Notes under the pieces: generated by a model
What the model saw: only the letters and a program-made list of their open reading frames with translations
What the model was told of the DNA's origin: nothing
Databases searched by the model: none
Position numbers and translations under genes: made by a program
Shown here: positions 55,315 through 63,569 of the stretch, in pieces
Layout of the letters: each line of letters opens with the position of its first letter
Position numbering within the stretch: position 1 is the stretch's first letter
Source of the DNA: Thiohalorhabdus sp. Cl-TMA
GTDB taxonomy: Bacteria; Pseudomonadota; Gammaproteobacteria; Thiohalorhabdales; Thiohalorhabdaceae
Length of the DNA: 64,000 nucleotides
Assembly: GCF_041821045.1 (NCBI RefSeq)
Contig: NZ_JBGUAW010000002.1
Span: 248,001 to 312,000, forward strand
Direction: 5' to 3'

Positions 55315-55680
55315 ATGGCCGAAGCCGACATCCCGATCACCGCCCTGAGTGCCGTCACCGTCGGTGTCTCCAGCATGGCCCGCTCCGTGGCCTTCTATCG
55401 GGGGCTGGGATTCGTCATGCGCTACGGCGGCGAGACCGAATCCTTCACCAGCTTTCATGCCGGCGCCGGCTACCTGAACTTGGCCCACTATCCGGAGCGC
55501 TCGGCCCACTGGTGGGGGCGGATAATTTTCTACGTGGATGATGTCGACCGCCAATACCGGCGCGCCCTGGATCAGGGCATCGACCCGGAGTTCCCTCCGG
55601 AAGACGCGCCCTGGGGGGAACGGTACTTCCACATCATCGATCCCGACGGGCACGAGATCAGTTTCGCTAAACCCCTATGA
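55315..55680 (+). CDS. VOC/glyoxalase-superfamily protein
   Basis: The 121-residue protein is one VOC module: VGVSSMARSVAFYRGLGF at the start, IIFYVDDVDRQYRRAL in the middle and PWGERYFHIIDPDGHEISFAKP at the end, with a likely metal site (His/Glu). Members isomerise or bind small compounds; the substrate is unknown. Confidence 0.85.
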   Translation: MAEADIPITALSAVTVGVSSMARSVAFYRGLGFVMRYGGETESFTSFHAGAGYLNLAHYPERSAHWWGRIIFYVDDVDRQYRRALDQGIDPEFPPEDAPWGERYFHIIDPDGHEISFAKPL

Positions 55681-55792
55681 AAGGCTTGGTCCTAGAACGG
55701 TTCCCTCTCCTTCACGCCAGTTCCCCCGGCTAGCCAGGAGAGCAGGTTAGGTAAGAAGAAACCCATGCCAAGGGTAGCTGCAAGGAATTTAG

Positions 55793-55883
55793 AAACAATA
55801 TTTTCATTGTTTAAACGTTTTTTAATATTAGGAATTAATGCGGAAAATGTTTTTCTTGCAAAAAAACCAAAAAATTGTGCAAG
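55793..55883. promoter_or_regulatory. AT-rich promoter region of rcoM with two palindromes
   Basis: AAACAAT-N6-ATTGTTT at 55793-55812 and CTTGCA-N17-TGCAAG at 55855-55883 lie in an AT-rich stretch directly before the regulator gene. They could be operators, possibly for another regulator or for self-control. Confidence 0.4.
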
Positions 55884-55894
55884 AGTCTTAATTA

Positions 55895-56653
55895 ATGGAC
55901 CGAATCTTTGGAAAAAAGTGGGGGCGGAGTTTGGAAAGCTTTTCCCATCAGCTGCAAAAGTTCGACCCCGGAATCGTATGGCTGGACGCCGGGGACCAGG
56001 TTTCCGCCATGAACGGAGTGGCCGCTCGGGTCCTGGGAGTGAACCCCGGGGAGGCTATTGGTCGGGAGATAACCCAGTTTCATCCCATCAAGAGCCGGGA
56101 AAAGGTCCGGTGGCTGCTGAATAGCGGTGCCACCTGCCCCATGGATTCACCACCTCCCATGACCATGCTTATCAACATTCCGGATCGGGTCCTCATGATC
56201 AAGGTGTCCAAAATGCTCGGTACGGAAGGCGGGGGGGCCGGAACGTGCATGGTCTTCTATGACCTCACCTCAGTGACCACCGAGCCCGCAGGCCCGGAAG
56301 AGGAGGGCATGTGGCCCCGGCGGATGTTCAAGATCCCCGTCTATCGGCACAGCCGATTGATCCTGCTCGACCTGGGTGAAGTCCTCCGCCTGGAGAGCGA
56401 TGGCCACTACACCTCCATCCACACCATGGACGGCCACTACCTTTGCAACCTCTCCCTGTCCGACCTGGAGGCGCGGCTGGACCCCCAGCGTTTCCTCCGG
56501 GTGCATCGCCGCCACATGGTGAATATCGACCACGCCCGCGAGTTCTGGAAGGAAGGCAATCGCGCCCGCCTCTATCTGGACGGCTACCGGGATCCCGTAC
56601 CTGTGAGCCGCAGCAAGGAGCGGGAGCTACGGGAGGTGATCGGCATGGAGTGA
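55895..56653 (+). CDS. rcoM: RcoM-type PAS-LytTR heme-based CO sensor/activator
   Basis: The 252-residue protein has an N-terminal PAS domain (about 15-130) and a C-terminal LytTR DNA-binding domain (about 145-250; LILLDLGEVLRLESDGHYTSIHT, RFLRVHRRHMVNIDHAREF). In RcoM-2 of Burkholderia xenovorans the heme ligands are His74, Cys94 and Met104. Here His63 (FHP), Cys81 and Met91 fall at nearly the same spacing (18 and 10 residues; 20 and 10 in RcoM-2). It lies just upstream of the cox cluster, which RcoM activates. The start has only a weak ribosome site. Confidence 0.87.
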   Translation: MDRIFGKKWGRSLESFSHQLQKFDPGIVWLDAGDQVSAMNGVAARVLGVNPGEAIGREITQFHPIKSREKVRWLLNSGATCPMDSPPPMTMLINIPDRVLMIKVSKMLGTEGGGAGTCMVFYDLTSVTTEPAGPEEEGMWPRRMFKIPVYRHSRLILLDLGEVLRLESDGHYTSIHTMDGHYLCNLSLSDLEARLDPQRFLRVHRRHMVNIDHAREFWKEGNRARLYLDGYRDPVPVSRSKERELREVIGME

Positions 56654-56710
56654 TCCCGGACCCCGTTCCAGGGCCGGAAAATTATTATTTTATTAACAAA
56701 CTTTTATGCG

Positions 56711-56763
56711 GTTCCCGTTCAGGCGCCCCGGTAACCATTCGTGAACCCCATTTCCCATTGAGG
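56711..56763. promoter_or_regulatory. Triple direct repeat, candidate RcoM operator of cox
   Basis: Three copies with exact 20-bp period start at 56711, 56731 and 56751. The consensus is about kTtcCCrTTcaGg: CCCGTT (56714), ACCATT (56734) and CCCATT (56754), each followed by a G after 4-5 bases. LytTR proteins bind direct repeats spaced about two helical turns. The array is about 105 bp before coxM. Confidence 0.7.
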
Positions 56764-56868
56764 AATCTTCTGTTGGCTCCTTTCGCGATCCAGGCGAGGT
56801 TGAGGAGCGAAGGGCAATTCCCGAGCAGTCCCGCCGGTCCCTGGGGGCCGGCCCGATAGGAGGTAGCC

Positions 56869-57738
56869 ATGATTCCCGGGGAATTTGAATACCACGCCCC
56901 CGGTACCATCGACGAGGCCTTGCGCCTTCTCGGGGAGTACGGGGACGAAGCCAAGGTGCTGGCCGGCGGGCACAGCTTGCTGCCCATGATGAAGCTCCGG
57001 TTCGCCGAGCCGGAGCATCTGGTGGACCTGAACGGCATCGGCGAGCTGCGCGGCATCCGCGAGGAGGGCGGGCACATATACATCGGTGCCATGACCACCG
57101 AGAACCAGCTTATCGATTCGGATCTGCTGTGGGGAAAGTGCCCCCTCGTTCCCGAGGTGGCGGGCTGGACCTCGGACCCGCAGGTGCGCAATCGCGGCAC
57201 CATCGGCGGCGACATCGTCCACGGCGATCCGGGAAACGACCACCCGGCCGCAATGCTGGCTTTGCAAGCGCACTTGCTGTTGGTGGGTCCCGACGGAGAG
57301 CGGGAGGTGCCCGCCGACGACTTCTTCATCGGCACCTACATGACCGCCATGGAGGAAGGCGAGATCCTGCGCGAGATCCGCATCCCGGCCATGGAGGCGG
57401 GTGGTGGCCAGGCCTACGCCAAGCTCAAGCGCAAGACCGGTGACTATGCCACCGCCGCCGCGGCGGTGAATCTGCGCATGGACGGAGACACCGTGCAGTG
57501 GGTGCACATCGGCCTGACCAACGTAGGGCCCACGCCCCTCAAGGCCGCGGACGCCGAGGCGGAGCTCACCGGCCAGGCCTGGGACGAGGCCCGCATCAAG
57601 AAAGCGGCCGAGGCCGCCATGGCCATCACCACGCCGGTGGCCGACCTGCGCGGCGACGAGGAGTACAAGACCCACATGGCGGGCGAGATGACCAAACGGG
57701 CCCTGCGCCTGGCGCGCGACCGGGCCAAGGGGAGCTGA
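56869..57738 (+). CDS. coxM: Carbon monoxide dehydrogenase medium subunit (FAD)
   Basis: AGGAGGT precedes the ATG. The 289-residue protein has the FAD-binding motifs of the xanthine oxidase family medium subunit: [10 protein letters not shown] (AGGHS) and [17 protein letters not shown] (TIGGD). It passes electrons from the Mo-Cu site through the iron-sulfur subunit to the quinone pool. First gene of the cox operon; coxS begins 2 bp after its stop. Confidence 0.95.
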
Positions 57739-57740
57739 CC

Positions 57741-58238
57741 ATGGCGAGCAAGACGCCCATCAAACTGACGGTAAACGGCCAGCAGCGCGAGGTGCTGGTC
57801 CATCCCCGCGAGCTGCTGATCCATACCCTGCGCGAGCAGCTCGGCCTTACTGGAGCGCACATCGGCTGCGAGACCAGCCATTGCGGTGCGTGCACCGTGG
57901 ACCTGGACGGCGCCTCGGTGAAGTCCTGCACCGTGCTCGCCATGCAGGCGAACGGTTCCGAGGTGCTGACGGTGGAGGGACTCGCCCAGGGGGGCGAGCT
58001 GCACCCCGTGCAGGAGGGCTTCATGCAGGAGCACGGCCTGCAGTGCGGTTTCTGCACGCCGGGTATGGAGGTGCGCGCCTACCGCTTCCTGCAGGAAAAC
58101 CCGGACCCCACCGACGAAGAGATCCGCAAGGGCCTGGCAGGTAACCTCTGTCGGTGCACCGGCTACCAGAACATCATCAAGGCGGTGCGCTACGCGGCGA
58201 GTAAGCTCGCCACGGAAAAGTCCCGCGAGATGGCCTGA
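57741..58238 (+). CDS. coxS: Carbon monoxide dehydrogenase small subunit (2x[2Fe-2S])
   Basis: The 165-residue protein has an N-terminal plant-type [2Fe-2S] site (CETSHCGAC...C) and the second site CGFCTPGM...CRCTGY. Both clusters are complete. It links CoxL to CoxM. Confidence 0.96.
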
Positions 58239-58250
58239 GGAGAGGGGACT

Positions 58251-60653
58251 ATGACGACTGTAACCGAATCCCAAGTCCGTGCCGACGAGCAGCAGAACCG
58301 CGGCTGTTCCCGCAAGCGCAAAGAGGACCCGCGCTTCATCCAGGGCAAGGGCAACTACGTGGACGACATCAAGCTGCCGGGCATGCTGCACGGCGACTTC
58401 GTGCGCAGCCCCTTCGCCCACGCCCGTATCAAGTCCATTAACAAGGAGCCGGCGCTCAACCACCCCGGCGTGCACGCCGTGCTCACCGCCGAGGACTTAA
58501 AGCCCCTGAACCTGCACTGGATGCCCACCCTGGCGGGCGACATGCAGGCGGTGCTGGCGGACGAGAAGGTGGCCTTCCAGAACCAGGAAGTGGCCATGGT
58601 CATCGCCGACGACCGCTACATTGCCGCCGACGCCACCGAGCTGGTGGAGGTGGAGTATGAGGAGCTGCCGGTGCTGGTGGATCCCCACCACGCCATGGAC
58701 GACGACGCCCCGGTGATCCGCGAGGACATCGCCGGCAAGAAGGAGGGCGGCCACGGTCTGCGCCTGCACGACAACCACATCTTCACCTGGGAGGTGGGCG
58801 ACAAGGACGCCACCGACCGGGTATTCGACGAGGCGGAGGTGACCGTCAAGCAGGACCTGCTCTATCCGCGGGTGCACCCCTGCCCGCTGGAGACCTGCGG
58901 CTGCGTGGCCAGCTTCGATTCCATAAACGGCGAGCTCACCGTGCACCTCACCTCCCAGGCACCCCACGTGGTACGGACGGTGTTCTCCCAGCTCTCCGGC
59001 ATCGCCGAGAGCAAGGTCCACATCAATTCCCCGGATATCGGCGGCGGCTTCGGCAACAAGGTGGGGGTCTATCCCGGCTACGTGGTGGCCTCCGTGGCCT
59101 CCATCGTCCTCGGCCGGCCGGTGAAGTGGGTGGAGGACCGCATCGAGAACCTTTCCACCACCGCCTTCGCCCGCGACTACCACATGACCGGCGAGCTGGC
59201 GGCGGACAGCCAGGGCCGCATCAAGGCCCTGCGCGCCAATGTGCTGGCCGACCACGGCGCCTTCGATTCCTGCGCCGACCCGCGCAAGTGGCCCGCCGGA
59301 TTCTTCAACATCTGCACCGGCTCCTACGACATCCCCACCGCCTACGCCCGGGTGGACGGCGTCTACACCAACAAAGCGCCCGGCGGCGTGGCCTACCGCT
59401 GCTCCTTCCGGGTCACCGAGGCCAGCTACCTCATCGAGCGCATGATCGACGTGCTCGCCCAGAAGCTGGACATCGACAAGGCGGAGATCCGGCGGCGCAA
59501 CTTCATACAGCCCGAGCAGTTTCCCTATTCCACGCCGCTCGGCTGGGAGTACGACAGCGGCAGCTACCCGGCCGCCCTGGAGCGCGTGCTGGAGGCGGTG
59601 GACTACGAGGGGCTGCGCAAGGAGCAGGCGGAGAAGCGCGCCCGCGGCAAGCTCATGGGCATCGGCATCTCCACCTTCACCGAGGTGGTGGGCGCCGGGC
59701 CGAGCAAGAATTGCGACATCCTCGGCGTGGGTATGTTCGACAGCTGCGAGGTGCGGGTCCACCCCACCGGCAGCGCCATCGCCCGCTTCGGCACCAAGTC
59801 CCAGGGCCAGGGCCACGAGACCACCTACGCCCAGATCCTCGGCACCGAGATCGGCATCTCTTCCGAGAACATCCAGGTGGAGGAGGGCGACACCGACACC
59901 GCCCCCTATGGCCTCGGCACCTACGGCTCCCGCTCCACCCCGGTGGGCGGCGCCGCCGCCGCGCGGGCGGGGCAGAAGGTCCACGCCAAGGCCAAGCGCA
60001 TCGCCGCCCACCTGCTGGAGGTGAGCGAGGACGACCTGGAGTGGGACGTGGACCGTTTCCAGGTGAAGGGCGTGCCAGACCAGGCCAAGACCATGACCGA
60101 GGTGGCCTGGGCCGCCTACAACGACGTGCCCGAGGGCATGGAGCATGGCCTCGAGGCGGTGGAGTACTACGACCCGCCCAACCTGACCTTCCCCTTCGGT
60201 GCCTACGTCTGCGTGGTGGACATCGACCGCCACACCGGGGAGAGCCACATCCGCCGTTTCTACGCCCTCGACGACTGCGGAACCCGCATCAACCCCATGA
60301 TCATCGAGGGCCAGATCCACGGCGGTCTCACCGAGGGCTTCGCGGTGGCCATGGGCCAGCAGCTGGCCTTCGACGAGGCCGGCAACATCCTCGGCGCCAG
60401 CCTCATGGACTACTTCGTGCCCACCGCGGTGGAGACACCGCAGTGGGAGCTGGACTACACCGAGACCCCCTCGCCGCACCACCCCATCGGCGCCAAGGGG
60501 GTGGCGGAGTCGCCCCATGTGGGCAGCATCCCCTGCTTTTCCAACGCCGTGGTGGACGCCTTTGCCCACCAGGGGATCAGCCACATGAACATGCCCCACG
60601 ACGCCTACCGCGTGTGGCGCACCATCCACGAGCTGGGGCTGGACGCCGACTGA
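58251..60653 (+). CDS. coxL: Carbon monoxide dehydrogenase large subunit, form I (Mo-Cu)
   Basis: The 800-residue protein has the form I active-site loop AYRCSFR with the copper-binding cysteine at residue 384; form II enzymes have AYRGAGR instead. Other family motifs are SPDIGGGFGNKVG and GAKGVAESPHVGS with the catalytic glutamate. It oxidises CO to CO2 with water. The form I signature makes true CO oxidation likely, not another hydroxylase function. Confidence 0.97.
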   Translation: MTTVTESQVRADEQQNRGCSRKRKEDPRFIQGKGNYVDDIKLPGMLHGDFVRSPFAHARIKSINKEPALNHPGVHAVLTAEDLKPLNLHWMPTLAGDMQAVLADEKVAFQNQEVAMVIADDRYIAADATELVEVEYEELPVLVDPHHAMDDDAPVIREDIAGKKEGGHGLRLHDNHIFTWEVGDKDATDRVFDEAEVTVKQDLLYPRVHPCPLETCGCVASFDSINGELTVHLTSQAPHVVRTVFSQLSGIAESKVHINSPDIGGGFGNKVGVYPGYVVASVASIVLGRPVKWVEDRIENLSTTAFARDYHMTGELAADSQGRIKALRANVLADHGAFDSCADPRKWPAGFFNICTGSYDIPTAYARVDGVYTNKAPGGVAYRCSFRVTEASYLIERMIDVLAQKLDIDKAEIRRRNFIQPEQFPYSTPLGWEYDSGSYPAALERVLEAVDYEGLRKEQAEKRARGKLMGIGISTFTEVVGAGPSKNCDILGVGMFDSCEVRVHPTGSAIARFGTKSQGQGHETTYAQILGTEIGISSENIQVEEGDTDTAPYGLGTYGSRSTPVGGAAAARAGQKVHAKAKRIAAHLLEVSEDDLEWDVDRFQVKGVPDQAKTMTEVAWAAYNDVPEGMEHGLEAVEYYDPPNLTFPFGAYVCVVDIDRHTGESHIRRFYALDDCGTRINPMIIEGQIHGGLTEGFAVAMGQQLAFDEAGNILGASLMDYFVPTAVETPQWELDYTETPSPHHPIGAKGVAESPHVGSIPCFSNAVVDAFAHQGISHMNMPHDAYRVWRTIHELGLDAD

Positions 60654-60679: not shown

Positions 60680-61288
60680 ATGCAGGTAACACTGGAGAAG
60701 AACATTCCTCTCGACGGCCCGCCCGCCGCCACTTGGGCGGTTCTGCAGGATATCGAGGAGGTCACCGAATGCCTGCCGGGGGCGGAGATCACCGAGCGGG
60801 TGGACGACAGCCACTACAAAGGCCAGGTGAAGGTCAAGGTGGGCCCGGCGTCTAGCACCTTCAAGGGCGAGGTGGAGGTGCTGGGCCTGGACGCGGGTCA
60901 GCACGAGCTCCACCTGCATGGCAAGGGGCAGGACACCAAGGGCACCTCCAGCGCCACCATGGACCTGAAGGCGACGGTCAGGGATACCGGCGATGGCAAG
61001 AGCGAGGTGGCCGGGGTCTCGGAGGTGAGCGTCACCGGCAAGATGGCGAGCTTTGGCGGGCGCATGATGGAGCAGGTGGCCGACCAGATCATGCAGCAGT
61101 TCGCCCGCAACCTGAACGACCGGGTGGCGGCCCGCGGCGAGGGCGCCGAGGCGGAGGCCGCCGCCGAGCGGGTGGCGAGTCAGCCCCGCGAGCTCAACGC
61201 CCTGCAGCTCGCCTGGAGCATGGTGGTCAGCTTCTTCCGGCGGTTATTCGGGCACAAGGGATCCCACCACGGCGAGCACCAGGCGTAG
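60680..61288 (+). CDS. coxG: CoxG, membrane-linked CO dehydrogenase accessory protein
   Basis: The 202-residue protein has the CoxG/SRPBCC domain (LDGPPAATWAVLQDIEEVTE, CLPGAEI, TSSATMDLKATV) and a C-terminal hydrophobic/basic tail (LAWSMVVSFFRRLFG). CoxG is needed to anchor the enzyme to the membrane and to deliver its quinone. It follows coxL by 26 bp. Confidence 0.92.
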   Translation: MQVTLEKNIPLDGPPAATWAVLQDIEEVTECLPGAEITERVDDSHYKGQVKVKVGPASSTFKGEVEVLGLDAGQHELHLHGKGQDTKGTSSATMDLKATVRDTGDGKSEVAGVSEVSVTGKMASFGGRMMEQVADQIMQQFARNLNDRVAARGEGAEAEAAAERVASQPRELNALQLAWSMVVSFFRRLFGHKGSHHGEHQA

Positions 61289-61300
61289 CCGAGGGATCAC

Positions 61301-61363
61301 GTAGGAGCCCGGCTCCGCCGGGCGATCCTGGTTGAAAAATCGCCCGCTAAAGCGGGCTCCTAC
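61301..61363. repeat. GTAGGAGC palindromic element, copy 2 (between coxG and coxD)
   Basis: Arms GTAGGAGCCCG (61301-61311) and CGGGCTCCTAC (61353-61363) enclose GC-rich inner hairpins. Same family as 18857 and 62286. Confidence 0.75.
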
Positions 61364-61399
61364 GGGGCATGGTGGGCATCCAGCCCAAAGGTAGGGGGA

Positions 61400-62272
61400 A
61401 TGGAGGACATCGCCCAATTCCAGAAGCGGCTCGCCGAGGTGGGCTACATCGCCGACAAGCCCCTGGCCGCCACCCTGCTGCTCACCGAGCGCCTGGGTCG
61501 GCCCCTGCTGCTGGAGGGCGAGGCGGGGGTGGGTAAGACCGAGGTGGCCAAGGCCCTGGCCCGCGCCAACGGCCACCCCCTGATCCGCCTGCAGTGCTAC
61601 GAGGGGCTGGACGTCAACGCCGCGGTCTACGAGTGGAACTACCAGCGCCAGCTCCTCTCCATCCAGATGGGTCAGCTGGAGGGCCGCTCGGAGGAGACCG
61701 AGGACCACCTGTTCAGTGAGCAGTTCCTACTGTCCCGTCCTCTGCTCCAGGCCATTCGCAGCCCGGAGCGGGCTGTGCTGCTGGTGGACGAGATCGACCG
61801 CGCCGACGAGGAGTTCGAGGCCTACCTGCTGGAGGTGCTGTCCGACTTCCAGATCAGCGTCCCGGAGCTGGGGACCCTGAAGGCGGTGCATATCCCCCGC
61901 GTGGTGCTCACCTCCAATGCCACCCGCGAGCTCTCCGACGCCCTGCGCCGCCGTTGCCTCTACCACTACCTGGAGTTCCCGGATTTCGGCAAGGAGCTTC
62001 GTATCCTCCAGGCCCATCTGCCGGGGATGAGCGAGCGCCTGGCCGGTCAGATGGTGGCCTTCGTGCAGCGGCTGCGGGCCCTGGACCTGCGCAAGAAGCC
62101 CGGAGTGGCGGAGACCCTGGACTGGGCGGCGGCCCTGGCGGGGCTGGAAGTGGACCGGCTGGAGGTGGAGACCGTGGCCGAGACCCTGGGCTGCCTGCTC
62201 AAGACCCGGGAGGACCAGGCCAGCGTGCCCCGTGAGGTGCTGCAGCGGTTGGCCGGGGAGGCGGGGGAATGA
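61400..62272 (+). CDS. coxD: CoxD, MoxR-type AAA ATPase for CO dehydrogenase maturation
   Basis: The 290-residue protein has Walker A EGEAGVGKTEVAKAL, Walker B AVLLVDEIDRAD, sensor TSNATRELSDALRRRC and the MoxR arrangement. CoxD acts with CoxE and CoxF in building the [CuSMoO2] centre. The REP-like element upstream could separate its expression from coxG. Confidence 0.93.
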   Translation: MEDIAQFQKRLAEVGYIADKPLAATLLLTERLGRPLLLEGEAGVGKTEVAKALARANGHPLIRLQCYEGLDVNAAVYEWNYQRQLLSIQMGQLEGRSEETEDHLFSEQFLLSRPLLQAIRSPERAVLLVDEIDRADEEFEAYLLEVLSDFQISVPELGTLKAVHIPRVVLTSNATRELSDALRRRCLYHYLEFPDFGKELRILQAHLPGMSERLAGQMVAFVQRLRALDLRKKPGVAETLDWAAALAGLEVDRLEVETVAETLGCLLKTREDQASVPREVLQRLAGEAGE

Positions 62273-62360: not shown

Positions 62361-62438
62361 AGGAATTGCCGTTTTCCCGCCTCATTTCTTGAATCCTTTC
62401 CCTTGGTGTTTTCCGTTTCGCCATCCAGAGCGCTTCCC

Positions 62439-63569
62439 ATGACCACCCCCGAACGCCAACTGGTCGGCTTCGCCCGCTTCCTGCGCGCCCACGGGCTCCG
62501 GGTGGGGATGGCGGAGCAGGCCGATGCCCTGCGGGCGGCGGCAGGCGGCTCATTGCTGGACCGTCGCCGGCTCTACTGGGAGCTGCGCGGGCTGTTCTGC
62601 GCCAGCCGGCGGGACTGGGAGGACTTCGAGCGGCTGTTCGAGGCCTACTGGGGCCGGGACCAACCCCGGGGCACCGTGCGTCACAGCGGGAAGGGAGGGC
62701 GCCGCGCTTCCGGGGGTCAAGGGCCGAATCGGGCCCGCCTCGCCCGGGAGGCTGCCGCCGGGGAAGGGGCGGAAGGGGAGTCCGCCACCGCTCCCCGCGG
62801 CGGAGCGAGCCGCGGCGAACGCCTGGCGGGTACGGATTTTCGCGACTTGACCGAGGGCGAAGAGATGGAGGCGGTGGGCGCCCTGGCGGAGCGCCTGGCC
62901 CGGCGCATGCAGCGGCGGCCGTCGGCGCGCTGGCGGCCCTCCCCCCGCGGCCGGCGTATCCACATGCGCCGCACCCTGCGGGCCAGCCTGCGCTACGGCG
63001 GGGTTCCCCTGCGCCCGGTGCGCGCCCGGCGCCGCCTGCGGCCGCCGCGCTTGGTGCTGCTGCTGGACGCCAGCCGCTCCATGGAGCTCTACAGCTTTTT
63101 CTTCCTCCGCTTTGCCCGGGGCCTGTTGGGCGTTTTCCCGCGGGCGGAGGCGTTCGTGTTCCATACCCGCCTGGTGCGGGCCAGCGACGCCCTGCGCCAG
63201 CGGGATTTCACCCGGGCCCGGGAGCGCCTTGCCCTGCGCTCCGCGGGCTGGGGCGGCGGAACCCGCATCGCCGAGAGCCTGGCCGCCTTCCGCCATACCT
63301 ACGGCGGCCGCATGCTGGATCGGCGCACGGTGGTGGTGATCGTCAGCGACGGCCTGGAGACCGGCGACCCCGCCGAGCTGGGCGAAGAGCTGCGCCGCAT
63401 CCGCGGCCGGGCGCGGCGGGTAGTGTGGCTGAACCCTTTGCTGGGCCGGGCGGGCTACGAGCCCACCGCCGCCGGCATGGCCGCGGCCCTGCCGTGGCTG
63501 GACCTGTTCGCTCCGGCCCACAACCTGGAAAGCCTTGCGTCCCTGGAGGATGCGCTCACCCGCCTGTAG
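62439..63569 (+). CDS. coxE: CoxE, VWA-domain protein for CO dehydrogenase maturation
   Basis: The start at 62439 gives 376 residues. The C-terminal half is a von Willebrand A domain with metal site LLLDASRSME and GWGGGTRIAESL. The middle is arginine-rich (RRMQRRPSARWRPSPRGRR). CoxE pairs with the ATPase CoxD, like other MoxR-VWA pairs. Confidence 0.9.
   Translation: MTTPERQLVGFARFLRAHGLRVGMAEQADALRAAAGGSLLDRRRLYWELRGLFCASRRDWEDFERLFEAYWGRDQPRGTVRHSGKGGRRASGGQGPNRARLAREAAAGEGAEGESATAPRGGASRGERLAGTDFRDLTEGEEMEAVGALAERLARRMQRRPSARWRPSPRGRRIHMRRTLRASLRYGGVPLRPVRARRRLRPPRLVLLLDASRSMELYSFFFLRFARGLLGVFPRAEAFVFHTRLVRASDALRQRDFTRARERLALRSAGWGGGTRIAESLAAFRHTYGGRMLDRRTVVVIVSDGLETGDPAELGEELRRIRGRARRVVWLNPLLGRAGYEPTAAGMAAALPWLDLFAPAHNLESLASLEDALTRL

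What the first reader, a model, noticed from the sequence alone, without database searches (positions are those of the whole stretch)
56711..56763. Three-copy 20-bp-period repeat ahead of coxM: candidate RcoM operator
CCCGTT, ACCATT and CCCATT with shared flanks lie at exactly 20-bp intervals on one DNA face, between a RcoM-type gene and the CO dehydrogenase operon. LytTR regulators bind spaced direct repeats. This gives a concrete binding-site model for this species.
Basis: partly seen in the sequence, partly recalled or inferred. Interest (0 to 1): 0.75.

Follow-up and report, generated by a model that had tools for sequence, protein, structure and literature searches.

The report
RcoM operator of a CO-oxidation operon
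Three short DNA repeats, 20 bases apart, sit between a carbon-monoxide-sensor gene and the genes for aerobic carbon monoxide oxidation; they match, across dozens of related bacteria, the landing site that this kind of sensor is known to use, so this is a well-supported but ordinary new example of a known switch.

Summary
The repeat is real: CCCGTT, ACCATT and CCCATT start at 56714, 56734 and 56754, exactly 20 bp apart. The functional core is shifted 4 bases right: TTCAGGCG, TTCGTGAA and TTGAGGAA at 56718, 56738 and 56758. This is TTnnnG three times at two-turn spacing, the published RcoM and CoxC operator layout. By itself the array is only modestly unusual. The decisive test was comparative. 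A three-site model trained on 40 other rcoM-cox intergenic regions, without this one, picks exactly these three sites. They are its best hit on both strands of the 64 kb window (23.0; next 15.7). Models trained only on Burkholderiaceae, or only on non-Burkholderiaceae, give the same answer. CCRTTnnnG three times occurs once in the 3.74 Mb genome. The same model finds the published CoxC operator and arrays ahead of RcoM-linked anaerobic (coo) CO dehydrogenase genes. It finds nothing ahead of three form I cox loci with no LytTR regulator annotated nearby. The neighbouring protein has the RcoM layout, with conserved heme-ligand positions. Binding, CO dependence and activation remain untested here.

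The parts
55895..56653 (+). rcoM-type gene: PAS-like sensor domain plus C-terminal LytTR DNA-binding domain (252 aa)
   Evidence: Pfam LytTR 2.8e-23; PAS 3.9e-4, just under the Pfam cut-off. His63 present in 53/53 aligned relatives, Met91 in 52/53, Cys81 in 43/53.
56715..56725 (+). Operator site 1: CCG-TTCAGGCG (TT at 56718)
   Evidence: Sequence; chosen by models trained without it.
56735..56745 (+). Operator site 2: CCA-TTCGTGAA (TT at 56738), 20 bp after site 1
   Evidence: Same calls.
56755..56765 (+). Operator site 3, promoter-proximal: CCA-TTGAGGAA (TT at 56758), 20 bp after site 2. Its 11 letters CCATTGAGGAA are identical to site 3 of Burkholderiaceae locus L028
56773..56778 (+). Possible weak -35 box TTGGCT, 15 bp after TT of site 3; Burkholderiaceae relatives have TTGAAT 14 bp after theirs. 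No convincing -10 box.
   Evidence: Alignment by site 3; the consensus promoter scan found no sigma-70 site in 55650-56900. Inference only.
56858..56863 (+). Ribosome-binding site AGGAGG of coxM
   Evidence: Sequence.
56869..57738 (+). coxM, CO dehydrogenase FAD-binding subunit
   Evidence: Pfam FAD_binding_5 1e-51 and CO_deh_flav_C 2.7e-27.
57741..58238 (+). coxS, [2Fe-2S] subunit
   Evidence: Pfam Fer2_2 8.1e-33.
58251..60653 (+). coxL, form I Mo-Cu CO dehydrogenase large subunit, active-site motif AYRCSFR at residue 381
   Evidence: NCBIfam TIGR02416, 1449 bits against cut-off 991; motif.
60680..61288 (+). coxG-like gene (assigned by position and length; not searched against a family library)
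   Evidence: Sequence; SRPBCC protein at the same position in L018.
61400..62272 (+). coxD-like MoxR-type AAA ATPase
   Evidence: Pfam AAA_5 7.6e-13.
62403..63569 (+). coxE-like VWA-domain protein
   Evidence: Pfam VWA_CoxE 1.1e-64.

Best explanation
The three repeats are the operator of the adjacent RcoM-type regulator. When CO binds the heme held by the PAS domain, the LytTR domains of the regulator occupy three directly repeated TTnnnG sites lying about two helical turns apart on roughly one face of the DNA, just upstream of the coxM promoter, and switch on coxMSL and its maturation genes. Shown here: the three sites, their spacing, orientation and distance to coxM, and their conservation across rcoM-cox loci. 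Inferred from published RcoM-1 and CoxC work: occupancy by this protein, dependence on CO, and activation rather than repression.
For: A three-site model trained on 40 other rcoM-cox loci, window left out, picks TT 56718/56738/56758 as the best hit on both strands of the 64 kb window (23.0; next best 15.7; mean -16.8, sd 6.8). Models from disjoint clades pick the same sites (18.4 and 20.0; p=0.005, the smallest value 200 shuffles allow). CCRTTnnnG three times with 10-12 bp gaps occurs once in the genome, the backwards-read control 0 times. All 42 tested regions score higher on the coxM-facing strand than on the other. Distance of site 3 to the coxM start, 111 bp, lies within the 51-138 bp seen in relatives, most of them 77-120. 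The model finds the published CoxC operator upstream of coxB of A. carboxidovorans with score 24.8 and arrays scoring 31.9-32.4 upstream of cooS-type genes next to three distant rcoM genes, so the array follows the LytTR regulator and not the enzyme gene; three form I cox loci with no LytTR regulator annotated nearby score 2-4. The rcoM product has LytTR plus PAS-like domains and conserved His63, Cys81 and Met91. The enzyme is form I CO dehydrogenase.
Against: Among the 41 regions the window's array scores low (23.0 against typically 30-40), because sites 1 and 3 depart from TTCNNGCA. No recognisable sigma-70 -10 box follows it. The nearest two genomes of the genus lack rcoM, so there is no close phylogenetic footprint. 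The intergenic repeat alone is only at the 1-3% level. No binding data.
Confidence: 0.87

Rival explanations
1. The array binds RcoM but represses, CO releasing it, as the related LytTR regulator CoxC does.
For: CoxC binds the same kind of triplet overlapping the -35 box and represses (PMC11347149). The promoter of coxM in the window is not identified, so overlap with it cannot be excluded.
Against: PMC11347149 describes RcoM-1 and most LytTR regulators as activators binding upstream of -35. Here the array ends 111 bp before the coxM ATG and a possible -35 box lies after site 3, as in Burkholderiaceae.
Confidence: 0.08
2. The array is bound by another LytTR protein of the genome, not by the adjacent RcoM.
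For: Three other LytTR-domain matches exist in the genome, and LytTR regulators share operator style: the model built on RcoM sites also hits a CoxC operator.
Against: Those matches cover only the LytTR domain (residues 141-251, E 9e-16 to 4e-10), on other contigs; rcoM is the adjacent gene and the rcoM-cox arrangement recurs in about 40 loci.
Confidence: 0.03
3. Chance repeat in an intergenic region, with no regulatory role.
For: A repeat as good at some period arises in 3% of shuffles, TTnnnG triplets in 1%.
Against: Independent cross-clade models put exactly these three sites first in 64 kb, at a distance to coxM typical of the relatives.
Confidence: 0.02

Closest known systems
RcoM-1 operators of Paraburkholderia xenovorans LB400 (Kerby and Roberts 2012; Dent et al. 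2022; both known here only through PMC11347149 and memory)
   Same: Three direct repeats, TTnnnG core, two-turn period, between a heme-PAS/LytTR regulator gene and a form I cox operon.
   Different: Published consensus TTCNNGCA with 12-13 bp gaps (20-21 bp period). The window has 20/20 bp; its sites match the six specified letters in 5, 5 and 4 positions; rcoM is co-oriented with coxM and the region holds one array, while several Burkholderiaceae regions hold two.
CoxC operator at PcoxB of Afipia carboxidovorans OM5 (PMC11347149)
   Same: Three TTNNNG repeats, 21 and 20 bp apart in the array found here, bound by a LytTR domain and controlling cox genes.
   Different: The sensor is a membrane MHYT domain using copper, not a heme PAS; the array overlaps -35 and CoxC represses.
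Canonical LytTR sites (AgrA, AlgR and similar)
   Same: Direct repeats about two turns apart.
   Different: Pairs of 9-bp repeats rather than triplets (PMC11347149).

Membership tests
RcoM operator | Three direct repeats with TTnnnG core | tested here: met
   56718, 56738, 56758.
RcoM operator | Spacing of about 20-21 bp | tested here: met
   20 and 20 bp; four of 40 distinct arrays of the set have 20/20, the commonest is 21/20.
RcoM operator | Each repeat close to TTCNNGCA | tested here: inconclusive
   Six specified letters matched in 5 (TTCAGGCG), 5 (TTCGTGAA) and 4 (TTGAGGAA) positions; relatives depart similarly, above all at site 3.
RcoM operator | Located upstream of CO-oxidation genes, next to rcoM, conserved between species | tested here: met
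RcoM operator | CO-dependent binding by RcoM | not testable with these tools
   Needs gel shift or footprinting.
RcoM regulator | N-terminal PAS domain and C-terminal LytTR domain | tested here: met
   LytTR 82.4 bits (cut-off 22.6). PAS 20.8 bits, E 3.9e-4, slightly under the cut-off of 22.6; full-length alignment to relatives supports it.
RcoM regulator | Heme ligands corresponding to His74, Cys94 and Met104 of RcoM-1 (numbering from memory) | tested here: met
   His63 53/53, Cys81 43/53, Met91 52/53 of relatives. The His-to-Cys (20) and Cys-to-Met (10) distances of the Burkholderiaceae members equal those of RcoM-1. RcoM-1 itself was not aligned.
RcoM regulator | Binds heme and CO | not testable with these tools
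   Needs purified protein.
Form I aerobic CO dehydrogenase (coxMSL) | CoxL equivalog score and AYxCSFR active-site loop, coxM-S-L order | tested here: met
   TIGR02416 1449 bits; AYRCSFR; order.
CoxC-type operator and regulator | MHYT-LytTR regulator | tested here: not met
   The window regulator matches PAS and LytTR, not MHYT.

The most novel reading that the evidence does not exclude
The operator is directional: the promoter-proximal repeat has its own form (TTnnnGA, commonly GCC[AG]TTCGnGAAAT) while the two distal repeats read TTnnnGC, which suggests that the three bound LytTR domains are not equivalent. The same operator plan is read by unrelated CO sensors (heme-PAS RcoM and MHYT CoxC), so sensors have been exchanged on one operator code. 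The window, with GC/GA/GA, would be an intermediate form.
Probability: 0.3. Interest if true: 0.45.

Novelty: new member of a known kind. Interest (0 to 1): 0.33.

Why it matters
It gives a base-level operator, with an alignment of about 40 relatives behind it, for CO-regulated CO oxidation in a gammaproteobacterial lineage, and the model recognises RcoM-linked operators ahead of both aerobic (cox) and anaerobic (coo) CO dehydrogenase genes. That helps to predict RcoM regulons and to build CO biosensors, but the regulator, the operator layout and the target genes were known before.

Tried and rejected
(1) Shuffle tests on the intergenic region alone: only 1-3% for patterns not chosen after the fact, not enough on their own. 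(2) An rcoM-upstream autoregulation array: best candidates 55835 (+) and 55864 (-) score 12.3 and 12.5, shuffle p 0.055 and 0.065, inconclusive. (3) Sigma-70 promoter and terminator scan: nothing in 55650-56900. (4) Same-family and same-order genomes: only three are held, two lack rcoM. (6) Primary RcoM papers PMC3486110, PMC10210986, PMC11155679 and PMC2347395 are not held; their content is taken from PMC11347149 and memory. (7) L011 and L052 gave no significant array under the Burkholderiaceae-trained model.

Full report
OBSERVATION. The three hexamers are at the stated places, exactly 20 bp apart, in the 215-bp gap between a LytTR regulator gene (55895-56653) and coxM (56869). Every hexamer ends in TT followed by nnnG, so the array can also be read as TTCAGGCG (56718), TTCGTGAA (56738) and TTGAGGAA (56758), each preceded by CC[AG]. 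The generic repeat finder did not report it as a family, because the copies share few letters.

CHANCE. In dinucleotide shuffles of the intergenic region, TTnnnG three times at 20/21 bp, the published layout, appears in 1.1%, and an equally good 12-bp triple at any period of 10-30 bp in 3%. CC[AG]TT three times at 20 bp appears in none of 20,000, but that pattern was defined after seeing the site. The repeat alone is therefore suggestive, not conclusive.

NEIGHBOURS. The downstream genes are coxM, coxS and coxL (Pfam); CoxL exceeds the TIGR02416 cut-off by a wide margin (1449 against 991 bits) and carries AYRCSFR, the form I signature. A coxG-like gene, coxD and coxE follow. The upstream protein has a LytTR domain (2.8e-23) and a PAS-like domain (3.9e-4, slightly under the curated cut-off). 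In an alignment of 53 relatives His63 is invariant, Met91 is kept in 52 and Cys81 in 43; from memory, these correspond to His74, Met104 and Cys94 of RcoM-1. It is the only full-length RcoM in the genome.

LITERATURE. PMC11347149 states that the RcoM-1 operator is a triplet of direct repeats TTCNNGCA with 12-13 bp gaps, and that CoxC of Afipia carboxidovorans binds three TTNNNGCN repeats 18-21 bp apart. The window array fits that layout. The primary RcoM papers are not held.

COMPARATIVE TEST. rcoM relatives were collected from genome contigs, plasmids and whole-genome searches. After removing duplicates, 41 loci including the window have rcoM close to coxM. Exact TTnnnG triplets at 19-22 bp are visible in many, for example L028 GTTCACG / GTTTGCG / ATTGAGG, whose third site CCATTGAGGAA is letter-for-letter that of the window. 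A three-site weight model was trained by iteration. With the window left out it picks precisely the three sites, and with sequence weighting it ranks them first in the whole 64 kb, both strands, at 23.0 against 15.7 for the next. Because near relatives could leak information, two disjoint models were trained. Burkholderiaceae-only: window 18.4, best on either strand (next 17.3), p=0.005. Non-Burkholderiaceae-only: window 20.0, next 16.1, p=0.005. Across tests, 13 of 16 and 25 of 26 regions reach p<0.01, and in all 42 the coxM-facing strand wins. The p of 0.005 is the floor of 200 shuffles.

CONTROLS. CCRTTnnnG three times is unique in the 3.74 Mb genome, with none for the pattern read backwards; two units alone occur 15 times against 12 for the control, so the third repeat makes the signal. 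The model gives 24.8 to an array upstream of A. carboxidovorans coxB, where CoxC binding was shown. In four other plasmid loci with a coxC-type gene it gives 24-31 between coxC and coxM (L076-L079). In three distant rcoM loci (L025, L026, L062) arrays scoring 31.9-32.4 lie on the strand facing away from rcoM; the genes on that side include a Prismane/CO dehydrogenase (cooS-type) frame, tested by Pfam in L026 and L062 and read by similarity in L025. Three form I cox loci whose annotated surroundings show no LytTR regulator (Thermomicrobium, Deinococcus, Natronorubrum) score 2-4. So the array travels with the LytTR regulator, not with the enzyme gene.

MECHANISM. Most likely RcoM with CO bound to its heme occupies the three sites cooperatively and activates coxM. 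Spacing of 20 bp (1.9 turns) places the sites on about one face. A weak TTGGCT lies 15 bp after site 3, where Burkholderiaceae have TTGAAT at 14 bp, consistent with an activator next to -35; but no consensus promoter is recognised, so activation rather than repression is inferred from RcoM-1.

LIMITS. The window array is among the weaker of the set. No binding or expression data exist here. Close relatives with rcoM are not available. Possible autoregulation of rcoM is undecided (p about 0.06).

EXTRA. With the model blanked beyond TTnnnG so that it cannot select for it, site 3 carries A after TTnnnG in 30 of 40 distinct arrays, while sites 1 and 2 carry C in 31 and 31. The effect is very strong in Burkholderiaceae (site 3 A in 23 of 24; sites 1+2 A in 1 of 48) and only a trend elsewhere (p=0.07). 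Related sequences are not independent, so the test values overstate. Whether this was noted in the primary papers could not be checked.

VERDICT. It is a new member of a known kind, with low to moderate interest.

Noticed in passing
Upstream of coxM in 40 distinct arrays; window 56758: The promoter-proximal repeat tends to read TTnnnGA while the two distal repeats read TTnnnGC; strong in Burkholderiaceae, a trend elsewhere.
   Followed up: partly
L074 upstream of coxB; L076-L079 between coxC and coxM: The model trained on RcoM operators also hits the published CoxC operator and similar arrays at other coxC-type loci, so two unrelated CO sensors use one operator plan.
   Followed up: partly
L025, L026, L062: Distant rcoM genes have strong arrays facing divergent genes that include a cooS-type (Prismane/CO dehydrogenase) frame, tested by Pfam for L026 and L062.
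   Followed up: partly
L013, L014: rcoM of Oceanospirillaceae and Amphritea lies next to a SCO1/SenC gene and a chemotaxis-receptor-like gene; in L014 an array (26.6) faces the SCO1 gene. A possible RcoM target outside cox and coo.
   Followed up: partly
Several Burkholderiaceae loci (L019, L023, L032, L036, L041, L048, L051): Two arrays in the rcoM-coxM intergenic region, one near coxM and one about 130-200 bp further upstream, nearer rcoM.
   Followed up: no
window 55780-55894: Very AT-rich stretch just before rcoM in a 66% GC window, with a weak TTnnnG-like array (TT at 55835, spacing 18/21, p about 0.06): possible autoregulation site.
   Followed up: partly
window 61302-61364: REP-like inverted repeat (gtaggagcccggctccgccgggcgat ... 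atcgcccgctaaagcgggctcctac) between the coxG-like and coxD-like genes.
   Followed up: no
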